The position numbers were made by a program, and so were the translations under genes. Of a stretch of DNA of 64,000 nt, positions 43,300-60,858 are shown one piece after another. The stretch comes from Roseococcus microcysteis (GTDB lineage: Bacteria; Pseudomonadota; Alphaproteobacteria; Acetobacterales; Acetobacteraceae), in assembly GCF_014764365.1 (NCBI RefSeq), contig NZ_CP061718.1, forward strand, positions 186,001 to 250,000. The letters run 5' to 3'. The notes below the pieces were generated by a model, which made no database searches, was not told the origin of the DNA, and saw nothing but the letters and a program-made list of their open reading frames with translations. The stretch's first letter is position 1. Every line of letters begins with the position of its first letter.

Positions 43300-43716
43300 T
43301 TAATCTGCCAAATCACGCAGCAATTTTACCGCCTCATTCTGAATTTCCGAAAGTGCAACAGCTAGATTTGTACTGCACCTAACAACCGCTGTTTCAATTT
43401 CCCGCGTCTGATTTGAATCGGGTGCATGACTTCGTGCAGCATTCAAGCTGCTCAAAATCTCGTGCCTCAGAACACTATCAATTTGCTGAATTTGAGGTAT
43501 TATTTTTGCTATCATATTTTTTCGTCTTAGCAATTTAAAGTACGTCATCCAAGATAGAATTTCGTATACAATTATAGACGAAATAATTCCAATAGTTACA
43601 GCAAAAAGAGATTTAAGATTTGCATTCGGAATTAATTCATCGCTAAGTGCTATCGCGATCGAAGTTATGCTGCCAGTAAGTACTGACATGGTTGCCGTCG
43701 CGGAACGATTTGACAT
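43300..43716 (-). CDS. Two-TM plus coiled-coil protein, AT-rich island gene 2
   Basis: Protein of 138 aa with two hydrophobic helices (about residues 10-27, MSVLTGSITSIAIALS, and 36-57, LFAVTIGIISSIIVYEI). A cytoplasmic helical tail rich in Ile/Gln/Glu (IAKIIPQIQQIDSVLRHEIL) follows and continues to the end. The ATG overlaps the upstream stop by one base (TAATG), so the pair is translated together. No catalytic motif is seen. The layout recalls SLATT-type 2TM effectors, but I cannot confirm the family. Confidence 0.75.
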   Translation of the reverse strand: MSNRSATATMSVLTGSITSIAIALSDELIPNANLKSLFAVTIGIISSIIVYEILSWMTYFKLLRRKNMIAKIIPQIQQIDSVLRHEILSSLNAARSHAPDSNQTREIETAVVRCSTNLAVALSEIQNEAVKLLRDLAD

Positions 43717-44249
43717 TATGCTTCGTTCCCGAATTTATATTTTTGCTTTAATTCACTTATTTCATTTTCGAGTTCATGGTTTCTCCGAAGCAATTCAACA
43801 TTCCGCTGGGCAAGCACTTTGCTTTCTTGGATAATACTTTCGATAATGAGTGTACTAGAACGAACATCGTTTAAGTTGGATTTCATGCTAGTAAGAGTGT
43901 GGCGAAGCACTTGGCTATATTCTAGATTGTGAAATGCAAATTGTGCTGAAAAGTACGAAACAATGCTAAAAAGAAGCGCGCTTATCATGATTGTGTACCA
44001 AATTAGGGCAGAAAGTAGATTATATTCTTTATTGAGTACTGTAATAGTAAGGCTTGCTAGATCATTTTCGAGATAGGTGATGTATAAAACGCTGATAGAC
44101 ATGATTGCAGCGTATAGTGCGGTAAAAAGTAAAGTAATCTTAAGGATGCGTCGGCGCCTGTTAAGCAAAAGACGCGACTTCTCTATTGGAGATAGGTCGA
44201 ATTCTACTATTTTGTTGATCTCATCTATTTTGTGTTCGCCTGATGCCAT
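43716..44249 (-). CDS. Two-TM plus coiled-coil protein, AT-rich island gene 1
   Basis: Protein of 177 aa from ATG 44249 (MASGEHKIDE), chosen because AGGA lies six bases upstream; ATGs at 44255 and 44276 lack this. A basic patch (LLLNRRRRILK) precedes TM1 (ITLLFTALYAAIMSISVLYI). TM2 is SALIWYTIMISALLFSIVSY, followed by a long coiled coil ending RRNHELENEISELKQKY. It has the same architecture as its downstream partner. Two helices with a basic entry and a helical cytoplasmic tail are typical of SLATT pore-like effectors. Defence or exclusion is speculative. Confidence 0.78.
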   Translation of the reverse strand: MASGEHKIDEINKIVEFDLSPIEKSRLLLNRRRRILKITLLFTALYAAIMSISVLYITYLENDLASLTITVLNKEYNLLSALIWYTIMISALLFSIVSYFSAQFAFHNLEYSQVLRHTLTSMKSNLNDVRSSTLIIESIIQESKVLAQRNVELLRRNHELENEISELKQKYKFGNEA

Positions 44250-49155: not shown

Positions 49156-49364
49156 CTATTTGTTGTTCCGGTCCTGCTCGATCAGACGCAGCAGCTCTTC
49201 CGGAATCGGCTCCTTCGCCACCTCGTCGAACATGGCGTGCAACCCCTGGTCGAGCCAGAGATCGAACGCCTTGTCCGAGGGTGCCTTGCGGGCACGCTTC
49301 GGGGGGAGCCAGGCTTGCTCATCCGTGGTCCAGGCCTGTCCGGTTCTTCCGTATCGCCGCTCAC
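49156..49364 (-). CDS. nepR: NepR-type anti-sigma factor, apparently frameshifted
   Basis: The C-terminal 35 residues (LWLDQGLHAMFDEVAKEPIP, then EELLRLIEQD) are a clear NepR domain, the anti-sigma factor that PhyR removes from EcfG. The best start is GTG 49364, overlapping the ecfG stop (GTGA), with GGAG five bases upstream. It reads MSGDTEEPDRPGPRMSKPGSP in the wrong frame for the domain. One extra C in the six-C run at 49301-49306 would join them into a 69-aa protein. A start in the domain frame at about 49395 has no ribosome-binding site. Either a sequencing deletion or real slippage is present. Confidence 0.75.
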
Positions 49365-50035
49365 CGCCGCTCCAGCTGTGCCCCAGCCTTATCACGGCCA
49401 AGCTTAGCCATGACAGGGGCCGCGGGCAAAGCGGAGAGCGCATGAGAAGGCACGGAAGCGCGCGTGCGGGTCTTGGGTGCGGCGACGCGGGGCTTGGGGG
49501 CCTCGTCATCGCCCAGCAGCCAGCGGCGCAGCATGGCGCGCGCGCGGGACACGCGGCACTTCAGCGTGCCCACGGGCACGTCGAGCTGCTCCGAGGCTTC
49601 CTCGTAGGAAAGGCCCTGGACCGAGATCATGATGAGGACGAGGCGATGATCCGCCGGCAGCTTGCCGATCAGGTGGCGAAGCTGCTGGATGGCCAGCCCT
49701 TCCTCCTGGCCGCCGCTGCGGGCGAGCAGGGAGGCGGGCGCGTCCTCGATGTCCACGATCTCGCGCCGGCGGCGCATGTTGGACAGGAAGCGGTTGCGCA
49801 GGATGCGCGCCATCCAGGCGCCGAAATTCGTGCCGGGCTGGAAGGAGGTCTGCGCGGCCAGCGCGCTGCTGACGCTGGTCTGCACCAGGTCATCGGCATC
49901 GGCGCGGTTGCGCGTCAGCGCCAGAGCCTGCTGCCGCAGGGCGGGCAGGGCGGCGACAAGAAGGTCATGGAAGCTGACCTCGGGTGCGGAAGCGACCATG
50001 TTGGCCTCGGCCTGGTCGTCCTGAGGGAGGGGCAT
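49361..50035 (-). CDS. ecfG: EcfG-type RNA polymerase sigma factor (general stress response)
   Basis: ECF sigma factor of about 224 aa. Region 2: LALTRNRADADDLVQTSVSS and FGAWMARILRNRFLSNMRRR. Region 4: HRLVLIMISVQGLSYEEASE and PVGTLKCRVSRARAMLRRWL. Both match EcfG, and nepR and phyR neighbours confirm the role. A basic/alanine-rich tail of about 45 residues after region 4 is unusual. The start is uncertain (50035, 50059 or 50089). A GCAAC/TGAAC-type promoter candidate lies at 50129-50155. Confidence 0.9.
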   Translation of the reverse strand: MPLPQDDQAEANMVASAPEVSFHDLLVAALPALRQQALALTRNRADADDLVQTSVSSALAAQTSFQPGTNFGAWMARILRNRFLSNMRRRREIVDIEDAPASLLARSGGQEEGLAIQQLRHLIGKLPADHRLVLIMISVQGLSYEEASEQLDVPVGTLKCRVSRARAMLRRWLLGDDEAPKPRVAAPKTRTRASVPSHALSALPAAPVMAKLGRDKAGAQLERR

Positions 50036-50128
50036 CGTGTTTGTGTCCGGTGCTCGCATGCCCCCCCAACGCTGAGGCCCGGACTTCATTGCATTAAAAA
50101 ATTGTAATGTGAAGCGGGGGGTGTCCAG

Positions 50129-50155
50129 GCAACCCGGAGAGCCCTGCCACGTTCA
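50129..50155. promoter_or_regulatory. EcfG-type promoter motif in the ecfG/sigma gap
   Basis: On the plus strand GCAAC-N16-CGTT (50129-50153). On the minus strand, toward ecfG, the same site reads TGAAC-N16-GGTT (50155-50131). The minus reading would autoregulate ecfG, with a leader of about 36-90 bases. The plus reading is the closer motif match but would run antisense into the second sigma gene. Confidence 0.55.
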
Positions 50156-50171
50156 TTCCCATAAGATGCCG

Positions 50172-50720
50172 TCAAACACCTGGAGGGGTCCGCAACCGAG
50201 GCTCGAGCGCGCGCCGCAAGGCGCTCCGCGCACGGCTGAGGCGTGCGCGCATGGTGCCCTCCGGCACGCCGCAGATCTGCGCGGCCTCGGTGGCGGACAT
50301 GCCTTGGGCCCCCATCAGCACCACCGCCTCGCGCTGCGGGGCGGGCAGGGTGCGCATGGCGCGCGCCAGGTCATCCAGGGCCAGGCTGTCCGTCGGCCCG
50401 GCCACACCCTCCATCCCTTCTTCCAATGGTGTCAGCCGCCGTCCCGCCCGCAGGCCGGACAGCCAGGCGTGGCGCAATATGGTGAAGACCCAGGCGCGCA
50501 GCTCCCCCACCTCCGTCATGCGGCGTTCGCTGGACAGGGCGCGCAGCAGCGTCTCCTGCACCAGCTCATCCGCGGCGGCGACGGAGCCGCTCAGCGCCCG
50601 CCCATAGCCGCGCAACGCGGGCATCAGCGCCACCAGCGCCGCGCGGAAAGTGGCCTCGTCGGGGGCGGCGACCGTTTCCTCCCCCATCAAACCATTCCCG
50701 CCCGGCCCGAGTTTGGGCAT
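50172..50720 (-). CDS. Second ECF sigma factor
   Basis: Sigma factor of up to 182 aa. Region 2: GYGRALSGSVAAADELVQET and ELRAWVFTILRHAWLSGLRA. Region 4: PAPQREAVVLMGAQGMSATE and VPEGTMRARLSRARSALRRA. It is similar in design to the adjacent ecfG product, so a paralogous EcfG-like factor is likely. Possible starts are 50720 (MPKLGPGGNG) and 50687 (MGEETVAAPD). It is divergent from phyR and lies upstream of ecfG on the same strand. Confidence 0.88.
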   Translation of the reverse strand: MPKLGPGGNGLMGEETVAAPDEATFRAALVALMPALRGYGRALSGSVAAADELVQETLLRALSSERRMTEVGELRAWVFTILRHAWLSGLRAGRRLTPLEEGMEGVAGPTDSLALDDLARAMRTLPAPQREAVVLMGAQGMSATEAAQICGVPEGTMRARLSRARSALRRALEPRLRTPPGV

Positions 50721-50764
50721 CCTGCCCCACGCCCCCTCATCCCTGTCGTCGAGGAGACTGTTCC

Positions 50765-51487
50765 ATGAGCGCCACCCAGCAGGAGCTGATCGCGGCCTTG
50801 CCCTATGCCCGCCGTTTCGCCCGCGCGCTCACCGGCAGCCAGGGGGAGGGCGATGGGCTGGTGGGCCGCGCCATCCCGCGCATGCCCCAGGACATGCCGC
50901 CGCGGCTGGGCTTCTACGCCGCCATCACCCAGCTCATGCGCGACCACCCGCAGCGCGATGCGCCGGGGCTGACGCTGGTGCAGCGCCAGCTCCTGCTGCT
51001 GACGGCGCTGGAGGAGGTCACGCTGGCCGACGCCGCCCGCGTGCTGGACATGACGCCCGAGCAGGCCGCCGACGAGGTGCGCCAGGCCCGGCACGATCTG
51101 CGCCAGGTGGCCGCCACCGACATCCTCATCATCGAGGATGAGCCGGTGATCGCCATGGACCTGCAGATGCTGGTGCAGGGCTGCGGCCACCGCGTGGCCG
51201 GTGTGGCCATGACCGAGCGCGAGGCGGTGCGCCTGGCCGGCGAACGCCCCGTGGGGTTGATCCTGGCCGATGTGAACCTCGGCCGGGGCGGTAGCGGCAT
51301 CTCGGCCGTGCGGACCATCATGGAGAGCACGACCACGCCCGTGATCTTCGTGACCGCCTATCCTGAGTTGCTGCTGACGGCCGAGGGCATCGAGCCCGCC
51401 TTCATCGTCCGCAAGCCCTTCGACCCGCTGAGCCTCGCCATCGCGACCTACCAGGCGGTCCATGCCGGGCGCGTGCCCATTCCGTGA
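50765..51487 (+). CDS. phyR: PhyR anti-anti-sigma response regulator
   Basis: Protein of 240 aa combining a sigma-like domain (about 1-115: LIAALPYARRFARALTGSQG, LLTALEEVTLADAARVLDMT) with a C-terminal receiver. Receiver residues: acidic pair in ILIIEDEP, phosphoacceptor aspartate in GLILADVNLGRGGSG, threonine in IFVTAYPE and lysine in FIVRKPFDP. When phosphorylated, it binds NepR and frees EcfG. GAGGAG lies upstream of ATG 50765. Its kinase is probably an HWE-type enzyme such as the one at 56711-59521. Confidence 0.94.
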   Translation: MSATQQELIAALPYARRFARALTGSQGEGDGLVGRAIPRMPQDMPPRLGFYAAITQLMRDHPQRDAPGLTLVQRQLLLLTALEEVTLADAARVLDMTPEQAADEVRQARHDLRQVAATDILIIEDEPVIAMDLQMLVQGCGHRVAGVAMTEREAVRLAGERPVGLILADVNLGRGGSGISAVRTIMESTTTPVIFVTAYPELLLTAEGIEPAFIVRKPFDPLSLAIATYQAVHAGRVPIP

Positions 51488-51522
51488 TGCGTTTCGTGAT
51501 GCATTCCGTGAAGGGGCATGCT

Positions 51523-51547
51523 GCAACCTCAGGGCGCCTTGCCCGTT
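51523..51547 (+). promoter_or_regulatory. EcfG-type promoter upstream of csbD
   Basis: Exact GCAAC-N16-CGTT, 45 bases upstream of the csbD-like start codon. CsbD proteins are standard general-stress targets, which supports a functional promoter. Confidence 0.65.
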
Positions 51548-51592
51548 CTCCTGGCCGAGGCGGCGCCGACGCCGCCAGCAAGGAGAAAGACC

Positions 51593-51790
51593 ATGAACAG
51601 CGACACCATCAAGGGCAACTGGAAGCAGCTGACCGGCAAGGCCAAGGAGCAGTGGGGCAAGCTGACCGATGACGACCTGACGGTCATCGAGGGCAAGCGC
51701 GACCAGCTGATCGGGCGCATCCAGGAGCGCTATGGCGTGGCCCGCGACGAGGCCGAGGCCCAGGTGAAGAGCTGGGAAAGCAAGTTCTGA
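51593..51790 (+). CDS. CsbD family stress protein
   Basis: Small hydrophilic protein of 65 aa: MNSDTIKGNWKQLTGKAKEQ and GKLTDDDLTVIEGKRDQLIG are the CsbD signature. The family is strongly induced in general stress in many bacteria, function unclear. aaggagaaag precedes ATG 51593; an upstream open extension would cover the promoter motif and is rejected. It lies directly downstream of phyR. Confidence 0.94.
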   Translation: MNSDTIKGNWKQLTGKAKEQWGKLTDDDLTVIEGKRDQLIGRIQERYGVARDEAEAQVKSWESKF

Positions 51791-51989
51791 TCCGGGCTTG
51801 ATGCCATCCCGGGACGCGCGCGGGCCCAATGTGCCGCCGCGCGCGACCCGTCGGGACAGGACGCGCGCGGCGTATCGCGGGCGGATGGTCCCGGCGCCCG
51901 GCCCCCCCCTCCAGGAACCGGACGGAGCCACCGCCTGACGCGGCGGGACAGGCGCCGGCCGGTCCTGCCGTTTCCCGGAGTGCAGAACC

Positions 51990-52154
51990 ATGCTGGCTTG
52001 GAGCATCACTTTTCTCGTCGTGGCCCTCATCGCCGGGGTCCTCGGCTTCGGCGGCATCGCATCCACGGCGACCGGCATCGCGCGCATCCTGTTCTTCGTG
52101 TTCCTGGTGTTGTTCGCGGTGTCCCTGCTGACCGGCCGCGGCGTCACGCTCTGA
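51990..52154 (+). CDS. DUF1328 family small membrane protein (YtjA-like)
   Basis: Protein of 54 aa: [20 protein letters not shown], a [18 protein letters not shown] segment and a second hydrophobic helix ending GRGVTL. This matches the short two-helix DUF1328/YtjA family, often stress-induced. GGAG at 51977-51980 precedes the ATG. The 199-base gap before it (51791-51989) is GC-rich with several short palindromes, but I find no exact EcfG motif there. Confidence 0.88.
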
Positions 52155-52202
52155 CGCCCCGGCCCGTCGCGGAATTCACCCTTGGCGGGGTCGGGGTGCC
52201 GC

Positions 52203-52976
52203 TCACGCGGCCTCCACCACCCGTTCCCGCCAACCCCGGTTCGTCACCTCGCGCGTGGTGACACGCAGCCTGCCTTCCTCCCACTCGATCAAATTCCACC
52301 CATTCACCGCGGAGACGCCGCGCGGGGAGAAGGCGCTCGGCGCCATCACCTGACAGGGCGCGCCCGGCTCGGCCCCCAGGGGCGTGACCTCGGCGCGGTG
52401 CAGATGGCCGCAGAGCAGCCCCGCGACATTCTCTCGCCGCAGCACCCGGATGGTGGCCTCGGCCCCGCGGGGCGTGCGCCGCCGGCGCGCCCAGGCGCCA
52501 TGCACCAGCGGGTGATGGCAGACCACGAGGGTCGGCTTGCCGCGCCCCACCGTCAGCGCCGCTTCCAACCTTTCGAGCCTGTGCTGCGGCACCGCGCCGG
52601 CCGACCAGTCCACATGCCATTGCGCGCGGCTGACCGTGTCGAGGCCGATGAGGCGCGCATGGTCGAGATCCAGCCGCTCGGCCGGCGCCGTCAGCCGCGC
52701 CGCGCGCCAGCGCCGCTTGGGCGCCATGAAGCGTTCCCACAGCGCGGAATGCGGGATGTCGTGATTGCCGGGCACCACCAGCAGCGGCGCGTCGAGCCCG
52801 GCCAGGAAGGTGAAGGCCGCTTCGAACTCCTGCGGCTGGGCGCGGCGCGTGAGGTCGCCGCTGATGACCACCGCGTCGGGGGAGGCGGCCCGCACATCGG
52901 CCGCCATCTCGGCCACGCGCGCGGGATCGGCCTCGCCGAAATGCAGGTCGGAGAGATGGGCGAGGCGATGGGTCAT
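52203..52976 (-). CDS. Metallophosphoesterase (calcineurin-like)
   Basis: Protein of 257 aa with all metal motifs: AHLSDLHFGEADP, VVISGDLTRRA, LVVPGNHDIPHSA, VVCHHPLVHG and GLLCGHLHRAEV. The order and spacing resemble cyclic-nucleotide phosphodiesterases and lipid-A-like pyrophosphatases. Start 52976 overlaps the stop of the lipid-kinase gene by four bases (ATGA), so a phospholipid or membrane-linked substrate is plausible. Confidence 0.92.
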   Translation of the reverse strand: MTHRLAHLSDLHFGEADPARVAEMAADVRAASPDAVVISGDLTRRAQPQEFEAAFTFLAGLDAPLLVVPGNHDIPHSALWERFMAPKRRWRAARLTAPAERLDLDHARLIGLDTVSRAQWHVDWSAGAVPQHRLERLEAALTVGRGKPTLVVCHHPLVHGAWARRRRTPRGAEATIRVLRRENVAGLLCGHLHRAEVTPLGAEPGAPCQVMAPSAFSPRGVSAVNGWNLIEWEEGRLRVTTREVTNRGWRERVVEAA

Positions 52977-53908
52977 GCCGGAACTCCCGGTGGGGGCGCC
53001 GCCCTCTCGCCATCCTGCGGCCGCTGCGGCGGCACCACCAGGACGGACAACGCCCGCTTGTGAAGGTTGACGCGGACGGGGGTGCGCGCGAGGCGCATCT
53101 CGCCATCCAGACTCATCCGCACGCCGTCCTGGCGGCCATGCACGGCCACACGGGCGACTTCGCGTTCGGACACCTCGGCATCCTCGCCGAGCTTGCCGCG
53201 GAACCAGCGCCAGGCCTGGCGCAGCCGTGCCACGGCCCCGGCGGGACGCGCCACATGCAGCAGCAGCCCGGTGGGACGGTTGGGCTCGGGCAGGGTGACG
53301 ATCACGGCCTGGCCCGTCTGCCGCGCGGCGGGGCCAAGCCGCACCCAGAGCTCGCGCGGGAAGGGGCGGGTCAGCGCGCGCAGCAGCGCCTGCACCAGCG
53401 GCCACCAGCCGCCCGCGCCGCCGCCGCGCTGCATCTCGCGGAAACGCATCAGCCGCGTCGCGCGGCCGATGATGAGCTGGTAGAGAAACACCTCGCCATT
53501 GGCGGTGGCCGTGTCGATCAGACCCGGCGCGGCGGCGGCGTAGAGCGCCGCGGCGGCCACAGGGTCATTGGGCAGATCGAGCCGCGTGCAGAGCCGGTTC
53601 AGCGTGCCGCCGGGCAGGGGGGCGAGGTAGCGCCCCGTGCCGCGCAGCCGCGCCGCCGCATCGCGCAACGTGCCGTCGCCACCGGCCACGAAGACGATGC
53701 GCGCGCCCTCCGCCCGCGCCCATTGCGTGTCGAGGTCGGCGCCCGCGTCCGGATCCTCCACGGCGAAGCCCGCCGCGCGCAGCGTGGCCGCGAGCTGTGG
53801 CCCCGGATCATCCATGGCCGAGAGGTTGCCGGCACGCGGATTCACGATGAGGCAGGCGGGCCAGGACGTGACGGGGCCGGGCGGTGCCTCGGGGGGCGGG
53901 GCGGTCAT
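52973..53908 (-). CDS. Diacylglycerol kinase-like lipid kinase family protein
   Basis: Protein of 311 aa of the DAGK catalytic family. ACLIVNPRAGNLSAMDD is the first motif, VFVAGGDGTLRDAAARL is the nucleotide-binding GGDGT and LAPLPGGTLNRLCTRLDLP is the usual GTxN variant. It phosphorylates a lipid such as diacylglycerol or a sphingoid base. Start 53908 has GGAA at nine bases; ATG 53929 is an alternative. It is divergent from a small stress-type membrane peptide. Confidence 0.88.
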   Translation of the reverse strand: MTAPPPEAPPGPVTSWPACLIVNPRAGNLSAMDDPGPQLAATLRAAGFAVEDPDAGADLDTQWARAEGARIVFVAGGDGTLRDAAARLRGTGRYLAPLPGGTLNRLCTRLDLPNDPVAAAALYAAAAPGLIDTATANGEVFLYQLIIGRATRLMRFREMQRGGGAGGWWPLVQALLRALTRPFPRELWVRLGPAARQTGQAVIVTLPEPNRPTGLLLHVARPAGAVARLRQAWRWFRGKLGEDAEVSEREVARVAVHGRQDGVRMSLDGEMRLARTPVRVNLHKRALSVLVVPPQRPQDGERAAPPPGVPA

Positions 53909-53935
53909 GGGCGATGTTCCAGCATGCAAGGCGCC

Positions 53936-53960
53936 GCAACCGCGGGCGTCACATTGCGTT
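53936..53960 (+). promoter_or_regulatory. EcfG-type promoter upstream of a 25-aa membrane peptide
   Basis: Exact GCAAC-N16-CGTT. The start codon of the small peptide gene lies 29 bases after the motif, a normal leader length. Confidence 0.65.
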
Positions 53961-53989
53961 CCTTAGACATCGCCAACAGGGAGATGAAC

Positions 53990-54067
53990 ATGCGCACCAT
54001 TCTGCTTTGGTTCCTGGGAATTCCCATTCCCATCCTCATTCTGCTCCTGCTCTTCGGAGTGTTGTGA
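53990..54067 (+). CDS. 25-aa hydrophobic membrane peptide
   Basis: Tiny gene encoding MRTILLWFLGIPIPILILLL, then LFGVL. AGGGAG at 53978-53983 is six bases upstream of ATG 53990; the ATG at 53984 is too close. It has an EcfG-type promoter motif upstream and a perfect terminator four bases after the stop, so it is a complete single-gene unit. A single TM helix with prolines is predicted. Function unknown, probably an envelope-stress peptide. Confidence 0.75.
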   Translation: MRTILLWFLGIPIPILILLLLFGVL

Positions 54068-54071
54068 ACGT

Positions 54072-54101
54072 AAAGGCCCCGCGGCGACGCGGGGCCTTTT
54101 T
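54072..54101 (+). terminator. Rho-independent terminator
   Basis: GGCCCCGC (54075-54082) and GCGGGGCC (54089-54096), six-base loop, then TTTTT. It ends the small peptide gene. Confidence 0.95.
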
Positions 54102-54167
54102 CATGTCCTCCGAGTGAGGGCAGCGTAGATGGGAAACCGGTCCGCGAAACATAAAAAGCCGGGCATG

Positions 54168-54200
54168 AAAAAGGGGCCGCTCCCCGAAGGAAGCGGCCCC
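54168..54200 (-). terminator. Rho-independent terminator after the PRC-barrel gene
   Basis: On the minus strand GGGGCCGCT (54200-54192) pairs with AGCGGCCCC (54181-54173), followed by five T (54172-54168). Confidence 0.93.
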
Positions 54201-54208
54201 CCGTTCAC

Positions 54209-54859
54209 TCAGCGGCTGCCGGTGCGCACGCTGTCGTAGTTGAACTCCGGACGCTCGCGCAGGCCGTCGCGGGTCGCACCCGGCAGCATGACGCGCTCAC
54301 GCTCGGCGTTCCACTGCAGGTCCGTCAGCGGCACGGCGACCAGGCGGCCACCCAGGCCCAGGAAGCCACCCACCTGGATCACGGCCAGCGGACCACGGCC
54401 CGCACCCGCGGCGGCACCAGCGGCCGCGGCACCCGCGGGCGGCACCAGGATGATGTCATCCACCGAACCGATGCTGTTGTTCTCGTCATTGTAGACGTTC
54501 GCGCCGATGATCTGGCTCATCCGCGGACGCGCCATGACGGCCGAACCGGCCGGGAAGGCGGCGCCGGCGCCGGCGGTCGTGCCGGGGGCCGTCATGCCCG
54601 CCGTGGGGGCGGTCGTGCCGGGGGAGGTGCCGGGCGTGGTGCCGCCGGGCGTCTGGCCGATGGCGCCACCCGGCGTCATGCCAGGCGAGGTGCCGGCCGT
54701 CGGCGGGGCGGGCTGGCCGGGGGTCGCGGCCTGCGGGGCGGTCGGGGTCGTGGTCGGGCCGCCACCGGGAGGCGTCGTCTGCGTCTGGCCATGGGCCAGC
54801 ATCGGCGCCACGAGCAGGGCGGAGGCCAGAACGGCCGGCGTCAGGATGTTGCGTCGCAT
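54209..54859 (-). CDS. Exported PRC-barrel domain protein with Thr/Pro/Gly-rich linker
   Basis: Protein of 216 aa. Signal peptide MRRNILTPAVLASALLVAP, cleavage near LAHGQ. Residues about 25-110 form a low-complexity linker of TPG/TTP repeats. A PRC-barrel follows: RMSQIIGANVYNDENNSIGS, VDDIILVPPAG, then AVIQVGGFLGLGGRLVAVPL. Such proteins are common in the stress regulons of alphaproteobacteria. AAGGAG precedes ATG 54859. A GAAAC-N16-CGTT motif lies 50 bases upstream. Confidence 0.88.
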   Translation of the reverse strand: MRRNILTPAVLASALLVAPMLAHGQTQTTPPGGGPTTTPTAPQAATPGQPAPPTAGTSPGMTPGGAIGQTPGGTTPGTSPGTTAPTAGMTAPGTTAGAGAAFPAGSAVMARPRMSQIIGANVYNDENNSIGSVDDIILVPPAGAAAAGAAAGAGRGPLAVIQVGGFLGLGGRLVAVPLTDLQWNAERERVMLPGATRDGLRERPEFNYDSVRTGSR

Positions 54860-54908
54860 GATGGTGTTCTCCTTGTCTGGCAGGCCTCGAAGGGACCCAC
54901 GCAAAAGA

Positions 54909-54933
54909 AACGCTCGGGCTTGAGCTTGGTTTC
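54909..54933 (-). promoter_or_regulatory. EcfG-type promoter variant upstream of the PRC-barrel gene
   Basis: GAAAC-N16-CGTT on the minus strand, one base from the GCAAC form seen four times nearby. It gives a leader of about 40 bases. Confidence 0.5.
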
Positions 54934-55026
54934 CAAGGTTTTTCAATGTTTTGAATGCGCCTTGAGCGCATGTGGCCGCGACCGGGGGCACCGGCCGCGG
55001 CACGGTTAGGGAAGGAGCGTTGCCGC

Positions 55027-55098
55027 TCCTGGTGGCACCTGCGCCGCAGCCCTCAGCGGCGCCTGCGCCGGATCCCTCAGCGGCGCCTACGCCGACGC
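55027..55098. repeat. Three tandem 24-bp units at the end of the YqjE-like gene
   Basis: Units 55051-55074 and 55075-55098 share CCCTCAGCGGCGCCT-x-CGCCG; 55027-55050 is a degraded first copy. The last unit encodes the arginine-rich tail and the stop of the minus-strand gene. The others repeat the same RRRR-stop context downstream. Confidence 0.7.
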
Positions 55099-55544
55099 CC
55101 GAAGATCAGCGCGAAGACGGCGAAGAGAAGTTTCCGCCCGATCCCCACGCCGACCCGGCCGGCGAGGCCCACGGCCAGACCACGCCAGGGAACCAGGTTC
55201 GTCACCTCGTTCACGGGCGAGGAATGCCGCACCATCCGCAGGCTGTCGCGCCGGATCTCCAGCGCCTCATCGGCCACGCGCCGATACTTGTTGCGCCGCG
55301 CCACGAGGAGGAAGAGCCCCGCGATCACCGCATCGGCGGCGGCGACATAGAGTACCGCCCGCAACTCCCCGTGATCCTCGGCGAGCCACACCACCGCCGC
55401 GAGATGGAGCAGGGCGAGCATGAACAGGCCGAACACCCCCGCGACCGCCGCAAAAGCGGCGGACCGGGCCATGCCGGCCGCCTGGCAGCGCAGGCGGAGT
55501 GCTTCCGCCTGCGCTGCGACCTCGAGGAGTCGCAGGCTACGCAT
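55077..55544 (-). CDS. YqjE/phage-holin-like membrane protein
   Basis: Protein of 155 aa. Two TM helices (FAAVAGVFGLFMLALLHLAA and YVAAADAVIAGLFLLVA) follow a helical N-terminus, as in YqjE-type proteins. A third hydrophobic stretch (IGRKLLFAVFALIFG) ends in six arginines. It starts two bases after the stop of the DUF883 gene, matching the yqjD-yqjE order of enterobacteria. The arginine tail is part of a 24-bp tandem repeat. Confidence 0.7.
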   Translation of the reverse strand: MRSLRLLEVAAQAEALRLRCQAAGMARSAAFAAVAGVFGLFMLALLHLAAVVWLAEDHGELRAVLYVAAADAVIAGLFLLVARRNKYRRVADEALEIRRDSLRMVRHSSPVNEVTNLVPWRGLAVGLAGRVGVGIGRKLLFAVFALIFGRRRRRR

Positions 55545-55546
55545 TC

Positions 55547-55852
55547 TCAGCGCCGCACGAGCAGCGCGAAGACGAAGCCGGCCAGCGCGGCCGAGGCCAT
55601 GGCCGTCAGCGGCTTCTCATGCACGAACTCGCTCAGGTTCTCGGCCTGGTGGCGCACCGCGTCGGTGGCGCGATGGGCGGCGGCCTCGGCGGAGCCCACG
55701 GCATTGCCGATGGCGGGCGAGACGCGCTCGCTCATCAGCGACTCGACCTTCTCGCGCAGCGCCGTGATCTCGGCATGCGGGTCGAAGTTCGTGGAGCCCG
55801 TGGTGGTGCCGGTGGTGCCCATGCGGGGCGGGTCATTGCGGAAATCGCTCAT
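55547..55852 (-). CDS. DUF883/ElaB/YqjD-like membrane-anchored protein
   Basis: Protein of 101 aa. A helical amphipathic body (ITALREKVESLMSERVSPAI) leads to FVHEKPLTAMASAALAGFVF, the typical C-terminal anchor with the HEKPL motif. In E. coli, related YqjD binds ribosomes at the membrane in stationary phase. It is the third gene after the glycine-zipper and Dps genes, with aaggag before ATG 55852. Confidence 0.88.
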   Translation of the reverse strand: MSDFRNDPPRMGTTGTTTGSTNFDPHAEITALREKVESLMSERVSPAIGNAVGSAEAAAHRATDAVRHQAENLSEFVHEKPLTAMASAALAGFVFALLVRR

Positions 55853-55899
55853 GGAAATTCTCCTTGGCCAGATATCGTCTTGGGCGTTGTCGTCTGTGG

Positions 55900-56373
55900 T
55901 CAGGCGACGTGGCTGCGCAGCAGCCAGGCCGCCTTCTCGTGCACCTCGATGCGGTGGACGAGCATGTCGTGGGTCGCGATGTCCTCCGCCTCCTCGGCGG
56001 CTTCGGCCAGTTCGCGCGCGCGGACGGCGATCTTGGTGTTGTCGTCGGCCAGGGTGCGGTAGGCACCGGCCACGTCCACCTTGTCCTCCAGCTCATCGAG
56101 CGTGGCGAGGTCCAGCATCGCGTTCAGGCTGCGCGGGGCGGGCTCGCCCAGCGCGCGCAGGCGCTCGGCCAACTCGTCCACGGCGAGGAACAGCTCCTTG
56201 TACTGCGCCTCGGTCAGCTGGTGCATGCCGATGAAGCCCGGGCCCGTCGCGTTCCAATGGCAGGCCTGGGTCTTGGCCATCAGCACATAGGTGTCGGCGA
56301 CATAGCCGGTGAGGGCGGCGGCGATGCCCCCCGCCGCGTCATTGGCGGCGGGGCTCTTCTTCGTCGTGCTCAT
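55900..56373 (-). CDS. dps: Dps family DNA-protection/ferritin-like protein
   Basis: Protein of 157 aa. Ferroxidase and core residues appear in KTQACHWNATGPGFIGMHQL, TEAQYKELFLAVDELAERLR and the C-terminal HEKAAWLLRSHVA. It oxidises iron with peroxide and may coat DNA. The lysine-rich N-terminus (MSTTKKSPAAND) suits DNA binding. It lies eight bases after the glycine-zipper gene and should be driven by the EcfG-type promoter at 56674-56698. Confidence 0.93.
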   Translation of the reverse strand: MSTTKKSPAANDAAGGIAAALTGYVADTYVLMAKTQACHWNATGPGFIGMHQLTEAQYKELFLAVDELAERLRALGEPAPRSLNAMLDLATLDELEDKVDVAGAYRTLADDNTKIAVRARELAEAAEEAEDIATHDMLVHRIEVHEKAAWLLRSHVA

Positions 56374-56381
56374 GTCGAAGC

Positions 56382-56639
56382 TCAGCGCCAGGCCGGGCGG
56401 CCGACATTCACGTCACGGGGGCTGGTCAGCACGCCGGTCGCGCCACCGGCCACGCCACCGATCGCCGCGCCGGCCAGCGGGCTGCCACCCGTGGCGGCAC
56501 CGATCGCCGCGCCGCCGGCCGCGCCGAGGCCCGCGCCGGAAAGAAGGCGGTCGCCCTGCGTCTGGCCGCAGGCGGCGAGGCCGCCGGCGAGAATGAGGCC
56601 CAGGGCCAGCTTCGGGCCAATGTTGGAAAGCTTGCGCAT
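56382..56639 (-). CDS. Glycine-zipper lipoprotein (YMGG/OsmB-like)
   Basis: Protein of 85 aa. Lipoprotein signal with lipobox LAAC (LGLILAGGLAACGQTQ). The mature part has glycine-zipper repeats (LLSGAGLGAAGGAAIGAATG, then GAAIGGVAGGATGVLT) that pack in membranes, as in OsmB, a stress-induced lipoprotein. It is the first gene of a four-gene operon with dps, DUF883 and the YqjE-like gene. Confidence 0.88.
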   Translation of the reverse strand: MRKLSNIGPKLALGLILAGGLAACGQTQGDRLLSGAGLGAAGGAAIGAATGGSPLAGAAIGGVAGGATGVLTSPRDVNVGRPAWR

Positions 56640-56673
56640 GTCGGCTTCTCCTTCTGCGTCTGTCTGGAGAAGC

Positions 56674-56698
56674 AACGTGCCCAACCCCGTCCGGTTGC
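56674..56698 (-). promoter_or_regulatory. EcfG-type promoter of the glycine-zipper/dps operon
   Basis: Exact GCAAC-N16-CGTT on the minus strand, with the CGTT element 34 bases upstream of the first start codon. The next bases make the site nearly palindromic (GTTGC), so a weaker plus-strand reading also exists. Confidence 0.65.
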
Positions 56699-56710
56699 AG
56701 CGGGACCCGC

Positions 56711-59521
56711 TCAGCTGCCGTTTCGGGACGCCTCCAGCGCCTCCACCAGCGCGCGGCGGATGCCTTCCGCGGTATGCGGCGGGTGCAGCATGCGCGGCGG
56801 CGCCTCGTCGCTCTCGCTTTCGAGGCCAAGCGTGTTGAGAAACAGCAGCGCCGAGGCCCGCCGCCGCAGCAATTGCGCCAGCGGCTGGGCCGAACGGCCT
56901 TGCAGCGTGCCCGACAGCACGGCCGCGTCCACGCGCTTCTCGGCCTCGATGAGTTCCACCGCCTCCTCGATGCTGGCGGCTGGGCCCAGCACCGCGCAGC
57001 CCGAGGCGCGCAGCAGCCCCGCCAGGCTGCGTGCCTCGGCCGCGTTCTCCACCGCCACGATCACGCGCCTTCCGGCCAGCGGCGAGGTCTCGCGCAGCCC
57101 CGTGACGAAGCGGCTGCCGGCCAGCGCCTCCGGGCCCAGCACCAGGGTGCAGCGCAGGCCGGTCTCGGCCCAGTCGCGCTCGATGTCGCCGGCCAGCAGG
57201 CCGCGGATGTTGGCGTCGATCAGCCGGGTGCCGAAGCCGCGGCGCAGCGGCGCCTGCACCATGGGCGGCCCGCCCTCCTCGCACCACTGCATGTGCAGCT
57301 TGTCCTGCTGACGCTCCCAGCGCAGCGTGACCTTCCCCTCGGGCACCGAGAGCGCGCCGTATTTCAGCGCATTGGTCACGAGTTCGTGCAGCACGAGAGT
57401 GAGCGGCTGCGCGGCCTCGGCCGTCAGGCGCACGGGCGGGCCCTGGGCCAGGATGCGGCCCGATTGCGGGGCGAACTCCTCGCGCACGATCTCGCTCAGT
57501 TCGGCCCCCACCCATTTCTCGCGCGAGAGCAGGGTGTGCGCGCGGCTCATCGCGGCGATGCGGCCCTCCAGCACCTCCACCAGCGCGGGCACGTCATCGG
57601 GCGCATCCGCCGCGGACAGGCGGATCAGACCGCGCACCACGGCCAGGGCGTTCTGCGCGCGGTGGTCCACCTCGCGCGAGAGCAGGCGCTCGCTCTCCTC
57701 CACGCGCTTGCGCGCCGTGATGTCCACCTTGGAGCCGCTGACGCAGGTGATGCTGCCATCGGCGCCGCGGATGGGCCGGTAGCTCGCCAGCCAATAGCGG
57801 GTCTGGCCGTCCACCTCGCAGGTGACCTCCAGCTCCTCCACCGCCTCGCCGGTGGCGACCACGCGGCGCATGGCCTCCTCGATGACGGGCGGCATGTCGG
57901 GGGCCACCTCGGACAGCGTCCGCCCGATATGGTCGGCCACCGGCACGCCATGGATGGCGGCGAGCATGTCGTTGATGGCGATGAAGCGCAGGTCGCAATC
58001 CAGCAGGCAAAGGCCCACCGGCGCGTTCTCATAGGTGGCACGCAGCTGCGCCGCCGTGTCCTCGGCCTGGGCCTGGATGACGCGCAGTTCGTGGAAATCG
58101 ATGCCGACCATGGCCCAGGCCGCGATCTCCGACGGATCATGCCGGATGGCCGCGCCCTTCATCAGGTGCCAGCGCCATTGCTTGTCCTCCGCGCGGCAGA
58201 GCCGCACCTCATGGCTGAACCCCTGCGCGCCATCGCCCAGGCCGCTCGCCACCATGGCGTCCCAGGCCGCCCACAGCCCGGGCCGGTCCTCGGGGTGGGT
58301 GGCGTCCATCCAGCCCAGCCCCAGGCTGCGGGCGTTGTCGAAGCCCGTCAGTTCCTGCCAGTAGGGGTTGGTCCAGTCCACATGGCCGGCGCGGTCGGCG
58401 GTCATCACGATCTGGGGGGCCACGCCCACCACCGCCTCCATGCGGGTCAGCGCGCGGCGCCGTGCCGCCTCGCGCGTCAGCACCGCATCCGCCATGCTGT
58501 CGAGGGCCGCGGCCAGGCGCTGGAATTCCCGCCCGCCGCGGATATGGCCCACGCGCGTGCTCCAGTCCTGCCGCGCCCAGTGGTTGGCGGCGCGCAGCAT
58601 GCGCTGCACCGGCCTGTCCACCGCCGCGTTGAAGAAGACGAGGCCCACCACGAAGGTCAGCAGCAGCGAGCCCACCACCATCACCGCCGCCTGGACATTG
58701 GCGTCCTCCTGCGCGGCGATGGCGCTGGCGGTGTCGAGCCCCACCGCGACGAAGAGGCCCTCGGGCTCGATCTCCACCGGCAGGTAGGCCACGGTGCGGA
58801 CCACGCCGTCGAGCGAGAGGGCCTCCATCACGCCCGGGGCGCGGGCATGGAGCATGGTCATCCCCTGGGCGCCGAGCGGGCGGCCCATGAAACGCTCCCG
58901 CGCGGCGGAGCGCGCGACGACGGTGCCCGCGCGATCGGCGATGACGGCCACGCCGCCCTCGGGCAGCAGCAGGGCCTGCAGTTCATCGTTCAGCCACCCG
59001 ACGGAGATGGCCAGGACGAGCACGCCGGCCACCTCGCCATCCGCCCCCATCAGCGGCTGGCTCATGTGCAGCGAGGCCTGGCCGCTGGCCCGCCCCGTGG
59101 CGAATTCACCGAGCTCCATGCGGCCCGAGCGAAGGGTGCGCTGGAAATAGGGCCGGTCGGCCACATTGGTGGACAGCACCGCCGGGTTGGAGGCGCAGAG
59201 CGCATTCCCTTCGCGGTCGAAGACATTGGCCGTGGCATAGCGGGGGGCCACGGCCACCACGCGCTGGAGGAACAGGTCGCAGGCGGCGCTGGCCTCCAGG
59301 CGGCGCACATCCTCATGCGCGGCCATGGTGCGCAGCGTGTGGCGCGCGCTCTCCAGGGTGCTGGCCACCTGGCGGCCCACCAGGCTCGCCAGCTGCATGG
59401 CCTGGGCCTCGAGGTCCCGCGTGCGCGTGTCCCGCGCCTCGCGTTCCAGCTGCACCTGGACGATGCCGGCGGGAATCAGCGCGAAGAGCAGTCCAAGGAA
59501 CGCAATGAGCGCGAGAGGCAC
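56711..59521 (-). CDS. HWE-family sensor histidine kinase: dCache, HAMP, two PAS, degenerate receiver
   Basis: Protein of 936 aa, GTG start at 59521. TM1 (LALIAFLGLLFALIPAG), a periplasmic dCache region (FDREGNALCASNPAVLSTNV, ADRPYFQRTL), TM2 near residue 275, HAMP, and two PAS domains (about 360-610). The HWE kinase core has the phosphorylatable histidine in REVDHRAQNALAVVRGL and an ATPase domain (LVLHELVTNALKYGAL). A C-terminal receiver-like domain (from about 815) has VDAAVLSGTLQG where the phosphoacceptor aspartate should be, so it cannot be phosphorylated normally. HWE kinases are known PhyR activators. Confidence 0.92.
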   Translation of the reverse strand: MPLALIAFLGLLFALIPAGIVQVQLEREARDTRTRDLEAQAMQLASLVGRQVASTLESARHTLRTMAAHEDVRRLEASAACDLFLQRVVAVAPRYATANVFDREGNALCASNPAVLSTNVADRPYFQRTLRSGRMELGEFATGRASGQASLHMSQPLMGADGEVAGVLVLAISVGWLNDELQALLLPEGGVAVIADRAGTVVARSAARERFMGRPLGAQGMTMLHARAPGVMEALSLDGVVRTVAYLPVEIEPEGLFVAVGLDTASAIAAQEDANVQAAVMVVGSLLLTFVVGLVFFNAAVDRPVQRMLRAANHWARQDWSTRVGHIRGGREFQRLAAALDSMADAVLTREAARRRALTRMEAVVGVAPQIVMTADRAGHVDWTNPYWQELTGFDNARSLGLGWMDATHPEDRPGLWAAWDAMVASGLGDGAQGFSHEVRLCRAEDKQWRWHLMKGAAIRHDPSEIAAWAMVGIDFHELRVIQAQAEDTAAQLRATYENAPVGLCLLDCDLRFIAINDMLAAIHGVPVADHIGRTLSEVAPDMPPVIEEAMRRVVATGEAVEELEVTCEVDGQTRYWLASYRPIRGADGSITCVSGSKVDITARKRVEESERLLSREVDHRAQNALAVVRGLIRLSAADAPDDVPALVEVLEGRIAAMSRAHTLLSREKWVGAELSEIVREEFAPQSGRILAQGPPVRLTAEAAQPLTLVLHELVTNALKYGALSVPEGKVTLRWERQQDKLHMQWCEEGGPPMVQAPLRRGFGTRLIDANIRGLLAGDIERDWAETGLRCTLVLGPEALAGSRFVTGLRETSPLAGRRVIVAVENAAEARSLAGLLRASGCAVLGPAASIEEAVELIEAEKRVDAAVLSGTLQGRSAQPLAQLLRRRASALLFLNTLGLESESDEAPPRMLHPPHTAEGIRRALVEALEASRNGS

Positions 59522-59591
59522 TGGTGGTCATCTCCCGAATGCGGGCGCCGAGGGATGCCGGCGCCGCCTTTCGTGCGGCGGTATTCCGCCG

Positions 59592-60506
59592 TCAGTTGCT
59601 CTGGCCGCCCGGCGTGCCGTGCGGTGGCGGCACCGCCCTTGCCTGGACTTCCACGGTCAGAGGCAGCGGGTCCGTGGGGTCGCCCACGAAGCCGCCGGCC
59701 ACAGGCATGGCCTGTGCGGGGGTGCGTGTCACCCCCACCCGGATGAGGTTTTGCCCGGCGATGATGCCATTCGTCGGGTCATATTCCACCCAACCGGCCC
59801 CCGGCAGATAGACCCCGCACCAGGCGTGGGTGGCGCCGGCGCCCTGGTTGGGGGCGTCCGGCTCCTCGTAGAGGTAACCTGTGATGAAGCGCGCGGCGAA
59901 GCCCAGGCTGCGCGCGGCCTCCATCATCAGCACGGCGAAGTCCCGGCAGGTGCCGCTGCCCATGGAGAGCGTCTCGGCCGGGGCCTGGGTGCCCTCCGCC
60001 TCGCGCCCCACATAGGTGAATTCCGCCTTGATGGCGCGCGTCATCTCCTCCAGCAGCTCCAGCGTGTGCACCCCGCCCTCGCGCGCGGCGAAGCGACGCG
60101 CCCAGGCATCCACCTGGCGCTCGGGGTCCGGCAGCTGGCGTTCGGTCAGGCGGGCCAGGTCCGGGATTTCATCGGCCGCGTAGGAGAAGGGGTAGAGCTC
60201 GGCCAGGGGATCCAGCGCCTCCCGCCGCAGCGAGGTTCCCGCGGGGTAATGGGTCAGCGACAGCTCCGAGACGATGCGCAGATGCGGCGTGCGAAGGTTC
60301 TCGTCCCATTCCAGGTGGCAGATGGAATTGCCGAAGACGTCATGCGCCCAGCGCGTGCGGGCGGCGGGCGGGTCCACCGTCAGCGTGGCCTCGTGCAGTC
60401 GCAGGTCGTGGCTGTCCTGGGGACGCAGCATGAGCCGGTGCGGCATGAGCCCTACCGGACGTTGATAGGCATATTCCGTTCGATGGCTGATCTGCACGTC
60501 GGGCAT
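59592..60506 (-). CDS. Transglutaminase-like family protein
   Basis: Protein of 304 aa. An N-terminal beta region (ISHRTEYAYQRPVGLMPHRL) is typical of bacterial transglutaminase-like proteins. The catalytic triad is in MGSGTCRDFAVLMMEAARS (Cys), ATHAWCGVYLPGAGW (His) and EYDPTNG (Asp). Probably a peptidase or amidase in the cytoplasm. Start 60506 (MPDVQISHRTEY). A TCAAC-N16-CGTT motif lies 67 bases upstream. Confidence 0.9.
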   Translation of the reverse strand: MPDVQISHRTEYAYQRPVGLMPHRLMLRPQDSHDLRLHEATLTVDPPAARTRWAHDVFGNSICHLEWDENLRTPHLRIVSELSLTHYPAGTSLRREALDPLAELYPFSYAADEIPDLARLTERQLPDPERQVDAWARRFAAREGGVHTLELLEEMTRAIKAEFTYVGREAEGTQAPAETLSMGSGTCRDFAVLMMEAARSLGFAARFITGYLYEEPDAPNQGAGATHAWCGVYLPGAGWVEYDPTNGIIAGQNLIRVGVTRTPAQAMPVAGGFVGDPTDPLPLTVEVQARAVPPPHGTPGGQSN

Positions 60507-60570
60507 GGGAGGTCCTTGGCCGGGGTCGCGGGCGGCTGTTGTGGCGGGAGAGAAAGTGGTGTCGGCTGAT

Positions 60571-60597
60571 GCAACGCGGCAGCCGGCGCGTCGTTGA
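60571..60597. promoter_or_regulatory. Bidirectional EcfG-type promoter
   Basis: Plus strand: exact GCAAC-N16-CGTT (60571-60595), reading toward an orphan terminator at 60813-60846. Minus strand: TCAAC-N16-CGTT (60597-60573), reading into the transglutaminase gene. A perfect 13-bp palindrome TGATAC-G-GTATCA (60595-60607) overlaps the edge and may be an operator. Confidence 0.6.
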
Positions 60598-60602
60598 TAC
60601 GG

Positions 60603-60846
60603 TATCATTCCGGTGGTGCGGTGGATGTCTCCGCCAGATCCCCCCCCACTCCCTCGTCCGGTTCGCCGGGCAAGGGAGGGTGGAGCCCCGCCCCGCCAGG
60701 TCCTCGCGGCTTTCCCGCGGGCCCGGTGCCGCCGGATGGTGCCATGTCGCCCCTCGTGGGCGGGCTTGGCGCAGGGTGCCGGTTTCCCCCCCTCCGGCAC
60801 TCTCTCTCCTTTGGCCGGAACCCCCACGGGTTCCGGCCATTTTTTT
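60603..60846 (+). ncRNA. Predicted stress-regulated small RNA (about 245 nt)
   Basis: The 352-base gap between the transglutaminase and decarboxylase genes has no convincing coding region. It does have an exact plus-strand EcfG-type promoter motif and a perfect terminator. The interval is GC-rich, with potential stems (for example GCCGGA near 60731 with TCCGGC near 60793). I do not recognise 6S, SRP, tmRNA or RNase P motifs. The 5' end is estimated from the promoter. Confidence 0.5.
60813..60846 (+). terminator. Perfect rho-independent terminator, plus strand
   Basis: GGCCGGAACCC (60813-60823) and GGGTTCCGGCC (60828-60838), 11-bp stem, four-base loop, then A and seven T. No plus-strand gene precedes it. 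The flanking genes are both on the minus strand, and the U-run is on the wrong side for the decarboxylase gene. Confidence 0.92.
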
Positions 60847-60858
60847 CATCCGAAGTTT

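What the first reader, a model, noticed from the sequence alone, without database searches (positions are those of the whole stretch)
50129..60597. Five exact copies of GCAAC-N16-CGTT in the stress-gene region: a probable local EcfG promoter class
Exact copies lie at 50129-50153(+), 51523-51547(+), 53936-53960(+), 56698-56674(-) and 60571-60595(+). One-base variants lie at 54933-54909(-) (GAAAC) and 60597-60573(-) (TCAAC). Six of the seven are placed 29-67 bases upstream of genes of typical general-stress type (csbD, 25-aa peptide, glycine zipper/dps, PRC-barrel, transglutaminase) or of a predicted sRNA. The known EcfG consensus is GGAAC-N16/17-CGTT. Here the -35 is mainly GCAAC, which makes many sites nearly palindromic and possibly bidirectional.
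Basis: partly seen in the sequence, partly recalled or inferred. Interest (0 to 1): 0.75.

Follow-up and report, generated by a model that had tools for sequence, protein, structure and literature searches.

The report
Stress promoters with one shifted base
In this Roseococcus bacterium the promoters of the general stress response begin with GCAAC where those of other alphaproteobacteria usually begin with GGAAC, and the stress sigma factor encoded beside them carries an unusual residue at the position expected to touch that base.

Summary
In detail: five exact GCAAC-N16-CGTT sites (shuffles 0.29) plus both variants. They lie in the master locus of the general stress response (GSR): nepR, two EcfG-like sigma genes, phyR, an HWE kinase. 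The class is genome-wide, not local: 43 sites against 10 for the reversed pattern; 26 of 43 lie 10-160 bp before a called gene start (random 4.2%), but canonical GGAAC-N16 at only 1 of 18. Downstream genes include Ku, Mn catalase, DUF892, CsbD, PRC-barrel. In three Roseococcus species six sites keep all 54 core positions while 22 of 96 spacer positions vary. The sigma operon's own promoter is probably GCAAT-N16-CGTT at 50068-50092(-). The NepR-linked sigma has Cys160 where sigma-E Ser172 contacts the second -35 base; a relative in which I found only this sigma has 50 GCAAC sites against 12. GCAAC is a known second-choice EcfG -35 in Sphingopyxis, so this is a new variant of a known kind. The Cys link rests on one clade and is a hypothesis. 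There are no expression data.

The parts
49156..49509 (-). nepR-like anti-sigma gene (start codon uncertain; NepR motif at 49174-49254)
   Evidence: Pfam NepR PF18557 29.1 bits over cut-off 25.7; NCBIfam NepR model only 21.2 bits, cut-off 100
49361..50035 (-). sigA, NepR-linked EcfG-like sigma factor, 225 aa, recognition helix GTLKCRVSRAR with Cys160
   Evidence: sigma-70 regions 2 and 4; best solved-structure match 5uxx; start and helix
50068..50092 (-). probable sigA-nepR promoter GCAAT-N16-CGTT, 32 bases before the called ATG
   Evidence: conserved in three Roseococcus genomes; G175 has GCAAC-N16-CGTT 33 bp before sigA
50129..50153 (+). GCAAC-N16-CGTT pointing through sigB (antisense) towards phyR, 612 bp on
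   Evidence: core invariant while 10 of 16 spacer positions vary in three species
50172..50720 (-). sigB, second EcfG-like sigma factor, helix GTMRARLSRAR
   Evidence: PhyR_sigma2, sigma-70 r2 and r4
50765..51487 (+). phyR, sigma-like domain plus receiver
   Evidence: NCBIfam NF006623 246.6 bits over cut-off 240; Pfam
51523..51547 (+). GCAAC-N16-CGTT, csbD promoter
51593..51790 (+). csbD
   Evidence: PF05532 80.3 bits over 40
53936..53960 (+). GCAAC-N16-CGTT, promoter of the 25-aa peptide
53990..54067 (+). 25-aa hydrophobic peptide with relatives in other genomes
   Evidence: gene; NCBIfam
54909..54933 (-). GAAAC-N16-CGTT, 50 bp before that gene
55900..56373 (-). dps-like gene
   Evidence: Ferritin PF00210 78.2 bits over 24.5
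56382..56639 (-). glycine-zipper lipoprotein-like gene, just before dps
   Evidence: gene; sequence; no family search run
56674..56698 (-). GCAAC-N16-CGTT, promoter of glycine-zipper-dps
56711..59521 (-). HWE histidine kinase with Cache and PAS domains
   Evidence: HWE_HK PF07536 65.3 bits over 22.8
59592..60506 (-). transglutaminase-like gene
   Evidence: PF08379, PF01841
60571..60595 (+). GCAAC-N16-CGTT; on the other strand TCAAC-N16-CGTT at 60573-60597 faces the transglutaminase gene
   Evidence: core kept in two relatives
60812..60846 (+). terminator-like hairpin with T run, possible 3' end of an RNA from 60571(+)

Best explanation
The sites are promoters of the PhyR-NepR-EcfG general stress response, read chiefly by the NepR-linked sigma factor sigA. 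Inferred chain: stress activates a kinase, phospho-PhyR takes NepR away from sigA, and sigA-polymerase binds GCAAC (-35) and CGTT (-10), 16 bp apart, at some 25-40 promoters, among them its own (GCAAT-N16-CGTT), csbD, dps, Ku and Mn catalase. The site at 50129(+) most likely makes a long-leader phyR transcript that runs antisense through sigB. In this genome the second -35 base has moved from G to C (A and T also occur) and GGAAC is almost unused. Shown by sequence: the locus, the sites, their position before genes, their conservation, and the G/C difference from sister lineages at orthologous genes. Inferred: sigma dependence, activity, what 50129 and 60571 transcribe, and that Cys160 of sigA permits the shift.
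For: GSR genes at the locus. 43 sites against 10 reversed, GGAAC 18 against 24. Promoter position 26 of 43 against 4.2% of random positions, binomial 4e-25; GGAAC16 1 of 18, Fisher 6e-5; outside the window 23 of 38. GSR-type downstream genes. Core 0 of 54 variable, spacer 22 of 96, Fisher 2e-5. Orthologous swaps: csbD GGAAC in G197, 25-aa peptide and glycine-zipper GGAAC in G097, all GCAAC in Roseococcus. G175 gave only one EcfG-like sigma, sigA, yet has 50 GCAAC against 12. EcfG proteins transcribe a GCAAC promoter in vitro in Sphingopyxis.
Against: No expression data. Gene starts come from a home-made caller. 9 of 43 sites are inside called genes and 8 more are not 10-160 bp before a start. 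SigA does not reach any sigma-family cut-off of NCBIfam beyond the ECF superfamily, so EcfG membership rests on synteny with nepR and phyR and on similarity. Sites next to TolB-like and PqqA genes are not typical GSR targets. In G175 the GCAAC/GGAAC position contrast was not significant (10 of 22 against 1 of 8, p 0.2).
Confidence: 0.85

Rival explanations
1. The GCAAC class is read mainly by the paralogue sigB (Ala at the helix position) or by the third EcfG-like sigma, not by sigA.
For: SigB lies in the same locus and all sigB-type helices listed have Ala at that position; a third EcfG-like sigma exists at 1015686-1016165.
Against: G175 gave a single EcfG-like match at E 1e-8 or better, sigA, and still shows the GCAAC excess. 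G097 and G197 have sigB with Ala but a GGAAC excess. The third sigma has the Ser helix GTVKSRVFRAR.
Confidence: 0.1
2. The sites belong to an unrelated ECF sigma factor or other regulator with a GCAAC-CGTT site, not to the GSR.
For: GGAAC/CGTT-like boxes are common among ECF sigma factors (general knowledge); no dependence was measured.
Against: Sites cluster at the GSR locus, precede typical GSR genes, and orthologous genes have GGAAC-N16-CGTT in sister genomes.
Confidence: 0.04
3. Chance or compositional artefact.
For: Background is not small: the reversed pattern gives 10 and GGAAC 18 matches in this genome, and in many relatives observed and control counts are equal.
Against: Position 26 of 43 against 4.2% expected and core conservation. 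Single sites inside genes may still be chance.
Confidence: 0.01

Closest known systems
EcfG (ECF15) promoters of alphaproteobacteria, GGAAC-N16/17-CGTT
   Same: -10 CGTT, 16-bp spacer, position before genes, kind of target genes, PhyR/NepR locus
   Different: second -35 base is C (also A, T), and GGAAC is almost unused in this genome
GSR promoters of Sphingopyxis granuli TFA (PMC7083833; passages, sections 10 and 11)
   Same: GCAAC is the second most frequent -35 there, and the GCAAC gsp promoter is transcribed in vitro by both EcfG1 and EcfG2
   Different: there GGAAC is the commonest -35; here GCAAC has replaced it
E. coli sigma-E and B. subtilis SigW bound to -35 DNA (PMC6713349, passages only)
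   Same: same helix frame; sigma-E Ser172 and SigW Thr171 contact the second -35 base (G and A)
   Different: sigA has Cys there and its presumed second base is C; no structure exists

Membership tests
EcfG (ECF15) promoter class | -35 box GGAAC | tested here: not met
   GCAAC instead; GGAAC-N16/17 in promoter position at 1 of 29 sites. GCAAC is a documented variant in Sphingopyxis
EcfG (ECF15) promoter class | -10 box CGTT with 16-17 bp spacer | tested here: met
   N16 at 26 of 43 and N17 at 6 of 12 GCAAC sites in promoter position; other -10 boxes were not scanned
EcfG (ECF15) promoter class | sites lie upstream of genes of GSR type | tested here: met
   6 of 28 downstream proteins outside the window had no Pfam family
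EcfG (ECF15) promoter class | transcription depends on EcfG and PhyR | not testable with these tools
   needs mutants or in vitro transcription
PhyR-NepR-EcfG partner-switch module | PhyR with sigma-like domain and receiver | tested here: met
   NF006623 246.6 bits over 240; PF22029, PF22233, PF00072
PhyR-NepR-EcfG partner-switch module | NepR anti-sigma factor next to the sigma gene | tested here: met
   PF18557 29.1 bits over 25.7; the stricter NCBIfam NepR model was not reached, 21.2 against 100
PhyR-NepR-EcfG partner-switch module | EcfG-type (ECF15) sigma factor | tested here: inconclusive
   ECF sigma of the right synteny; best solved match 5uxx, E 3.8e-26 (that this is a NepR-bound EcfG is recalled); NCBIfam equivalog and subfamily cut-offs not reached; no ECF15 model in the libraries used
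PhyR-NepR-EcfG partner-switch module | HWE/HisKA2 sensor kinase | tested here: met
   PF07536 65.3 bits over 22.8; PhyK model not reached, 79.6 against 750; signalling to this PhyR not tested

The most novel reading that the evidence does not exclude
In the clade around Roseococcus a Ser-to-Cys change at the recognition-helix residue that contacts the second -35 base let the general-stress regulon move from GGAAC to GCAAC, ending in genomes such as this one where GGAAC is gone: a rewired promoter language that ancestral EcfG would read poorly. Support: promoters near the GSR locus are 26 GCAAC and 0 GGAAC in 16 Cys genomes (the 26 come from 12 of them), 14 and 9 in 62 Ser genomes, 0 and 5 in 11 canonical-helix genomes. 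Against: the 16 Cys genomes are one clade, so one event; 11 of 17 DUF1328 upstream regions in Ser genomes also have GCAAC; genome-wide, Cys genomes G141 and G159 show no GCAAC excess and G125, G162 and G003 keep a GGAAC excess; a third sigma of this genome keeps Ser.
Probability: 0.3. Interest if true: 0.7.

Novelty: new variant of a known kind. Interest (0 to 1): 0.5.

Why it matters
Looking for the general-stress regulon with the textbook GGAAC motif would miss it almost entirely here: 1 of 29 GGAAC sites examined is in promoter position. If the Cys link holds, this is a natural, testable case of a global regulator and dozens of its promoters changing specificity together, with sister lineages on either side of the change.

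Tried and rejected
Local class: rejected, 38 of 43 exact sites are outside the window. Compositional artefact: rejected by position and conservation. Bidirectional promoter class: 8 of 34 intergenic site-strands have a full reverse partner; not shown to exceed chance. 50129 as the minus-strand promoter of sigA: set aside for GCAAT-N16-CGTT at 50068-50092. A strict rule (Ser gives GGAAC; Cys or Ala gives GCAAC): weakened by DUF1328 promoters of Ser genomes, the single origin of Cys, the Ser-type third sigma and the Cys genomes that keep a GGAAC excess.

Limits of the counts. The reversed-pattern control is crude: over 200 genomes of the family, pooled counts are 6031 against 5942 for GCAAC and 5312 against 6781 for GGAAC, so only strong single-genome excesses mean something. 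This genome ranks 3rd of 200 for GCAAC and 108th for GGAAC. The helix table uses 90 genomes: 101 of 200 had a NepR match; one of them (G149) was not fetched; 10 of the 100 fetched gave no usable sigma hit and were dropped. The PhyR tree has 87 of those 90. One search used a wrong helix expression and was redone. Group tests (Mann-Whitney 1e-4 and 0.01, Fisher 4e-4) are not corrected for ancestry. Within-genome contrasts were not significant: G097 GGAAC 4 of 21 and GCAAC 3 of 9 in promoter position; G175 GCAAC 10 of 22 and GGAAC 1 of 8 (loci for 30 of 52 and 30 of 76 sites). In 115 class-level genomes I saw by eye no other genome with 20 or more GCAAC matches and a higher ratio to control; no statistic was run. 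Rfam gave only hits below the gathering score. In one search the 25-aa peptide was submitted one base out of frame, so its lack of a family means nothing. Papers: searches; EcfG with GCAAC gave 2 papers, of which I saw passages, and two sections of one. The library holds open-licence papers only, and I did not search under the family name Roseomonadaceae.
Full report
What was checked. The five exact sites and both one-base variants are where the finding says. Expected by chance in the window: 0.29.

Where it is. The genome is one contig of 4.208 Mb; the window is C1:186001-250000. SigA is 98% and 96% identical to proteins of Roseococcus thiosulfatophilus RB-3 and R. suduntuyensis DSM 19979, so this is a Roseococcus or a near relative (Alphaproteobacteria, Acetobacterales, Roseomonadaceae in NCBI's taxonomy). 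The finding's region is the GSR master locus: NepR, ECF sigma sigA beside it, a second ECF sigma sigB, PhyR over its curated cut-off and an HWE kinase.

Genome-wide class. GCAAC-N16-CGTT has 43 matches against 10 for the reversed pattern; GGAAC-N16-CGTT has 18 against 24. One near-palindromic place (1839200/1839202) is counted on both strands. I held 105 of the 111 GNAAC-N16/17-CGTT sites counted and called genes with a codon-usage script trained on this genome. Sites outside genes and 10-160 bp before a start: GCAAC16 26 of 43, GCAAC17 6 of 12, GAAAC16 4 of 11, GAAAC17 0 of 4, GTAAC16 3 of 4, GTAAC17 1 of 2, GGAAC16 1 of 18, GGAAC17 0 of 11; random positions 1186 of 28000. The one GGAAC site (1461219) is the reverse partner of a GCAAC site (1461221). 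So the usual EcfG base G is the one base hardly used at this position. An earlier, slightly stricter classification gave 33 of 43 GCAAC and 6 of 18 GGAAC sites as intergenic.

Regulon. Pfam on 28 genes next downstream of sites outside the window (the other two proteins in those calls were the window's transglutaminase and a flanking gene): Ku, Mn catalase, DUF892, PRC-barrel, pyridoxamine-oxidase-like, FGE-sulfatase with DinB_2 (EgtB-like by recall), fasciclin, DUF3309, DUF2934, DUF3775, an isoamylase-type protein, glucose/sorbosone and PQQ dehydrogenases, AI-2E transporter, outer-membrane efflux protein, P450, TolB-like, PqqA, an epimerase and others; 6 of 28 had no family. Four of the 28 follow sites that overlap the end of the previous gene, and one lies 220 bp away. 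A second cluster near 1.00-1.02 Mb has DUF892, Ku, a gene that looks like ligD (recalled from its sequence), a 24-aa peptide and a third EcfG-like sigma.

Conservation. In this strain, G044 and G124 all six window sites are present; 0 of 54 core positions and 22 of 96 spacer positions vary. The 50129 site is the most telling: 10 of 16 spacer positions differ, none in the core. The sigA leader holds GCAAT-N16-CGTT in all three, and the more distant G175 has GCAAC-N16-CGTT 33 bp before sigA, so the sigma operon is probably self-activating.

50129(+). No gene starts within 160 bp. It reads antisense through sigB to phyR, 612 bp on, with no terminator-like site on the plus strand between them. In G175, where the search found no sigB, a site lies 323 bp before phyR; in G176 one lies 661 bp before phyR. 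A long-leader phyR transcript is the simplest reading; an antisense effect on sigB is possible. Both are inference.

Which sigma. This genome has three EcfG-like matches at E 1e-8 or better; G175 has one, sigA, and shows 50 GCAAC sites against 12. So sigA alone can account for the class.

Why C. In the sigma-E/-35 complex, Ser172 and Thr169 contact the second base of GGAAC (PMC6713349, passages). The residues named there (Thr169, Arg171, Ser172, Arg173, Arg176, Arg178) have the same spacing as GTLKCRVSRAR in sigA, which puts Cys160 at Ser172; the mapping is by that motif, not by a printed alignment. The 5uxx sigma has GTIKSRVSRAR. Over 90 genomes of the same family with a usable sigma, promoters in the fetched GSR loci were: Cys type (16 genomes) 26 C and 0 G, from 12 genomes; Ala type (1) 4 C and 0 G; Ser type (62) 14 C and 9 G; canonical helix (11) 0 C and 5 G. 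A PhyR tree of 87 rows puts all 16 Cys genomes in one clade, support 99/94, so this is one event. Ten of the 14 Ser genomes with a C site have it at the DUF1328 gene, and in all 11 of 17 DUF1328 upstream regions of Ser genomes have GCAAC, 3 GAAAC, 3 none, so GCAAC at that promoter predates or is independent of Cys. G097 and G197, just outside the Cys clade in the tree, have Ser and a GGAAC excess (34 against 5; 61 against 22), with GGAAC at csbD (G197) and at the 25-aa peptide and glycine-zipper genes (G097), where Roseococcus has GCAAC. But Cys genomes differ among themselves: G141 (14 against 20) and G159 (16 against 16) have no GCAAC excess, and G125 (44 against 17), G162 (41 against 16) and G003 (36 against 20) also have a GGAAC excess; the loss of GGAAC is clear in this genome, G044, G124, G011 and G016. 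The Ala-type G176 has both in excess (50 against 24, 57 against 16).

Against what is known. GCAAC is the second commonest -35 among GSR promoters of Sphingopyxis granuli and works in vitro with both its EcfG proteins (PMC7083833, passages and sections 10 and 11); some EcfG-dependent genes of Sphingomonas melonis are listed with GCAAC sites (PMC6599016, passages). So GCAAC as such is not new. What I did not find in print is a genome where it is the rule and GGAAC is almost unused (searches; open-licence papers only).

Verdict. Sigma dependence and the role of Cys160 remain for the bench.

Noticed in passing
window 53990-54067 (+); also L105, L106, L111, L112, L121, L123, L251: A 25-aa hydrophobic peptide (MRTILLWFLGIPIPILILLLLFGVL) recurs in other genomes of the family, with GCAAC promoters in six listed rows, GGAAC in G097, and no matching site in G052.
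   Followed up: partly
window 60603-60846 (+): Possible GSR-controlled RNA of about 240 nt between the 60571(+) site and a strong terminator-like hairpin; no called gene on that strand. Rfam shows only a sub-threshold suhB-like hit at 60778-60853, and another at 54042-54111.
   Followed up: partly
own genome C1:1006950-1016606 (L243, L218): A second GSR-like cluster with several G-N-AAC-N16/17-CGTT sites, Ku, DUF892, a 24-aa peptide and a third EcfG-like sigma with the Ser helix.
   Followed up: partly
window 43702-43729: A near-perfect inverted repeat reads GGAAC-N17-CGTT on both strands in a gap of about 1.3 kb between called genes; purpose unknown.
   Followed up: no
L118 (G197) and L119 (G097): The gap between sigA and sigB holds a small membrane-protein-like gene with its own GGAAC promoter, while sigA has a GCAAC-N17 promoter.
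   Followed up: no
family scan: Only 101 of 200 genomes of the family have a NepR match at E 0.001, so many relatives seem to lack the GSR or have a diverged NepR.
   Followed up: no
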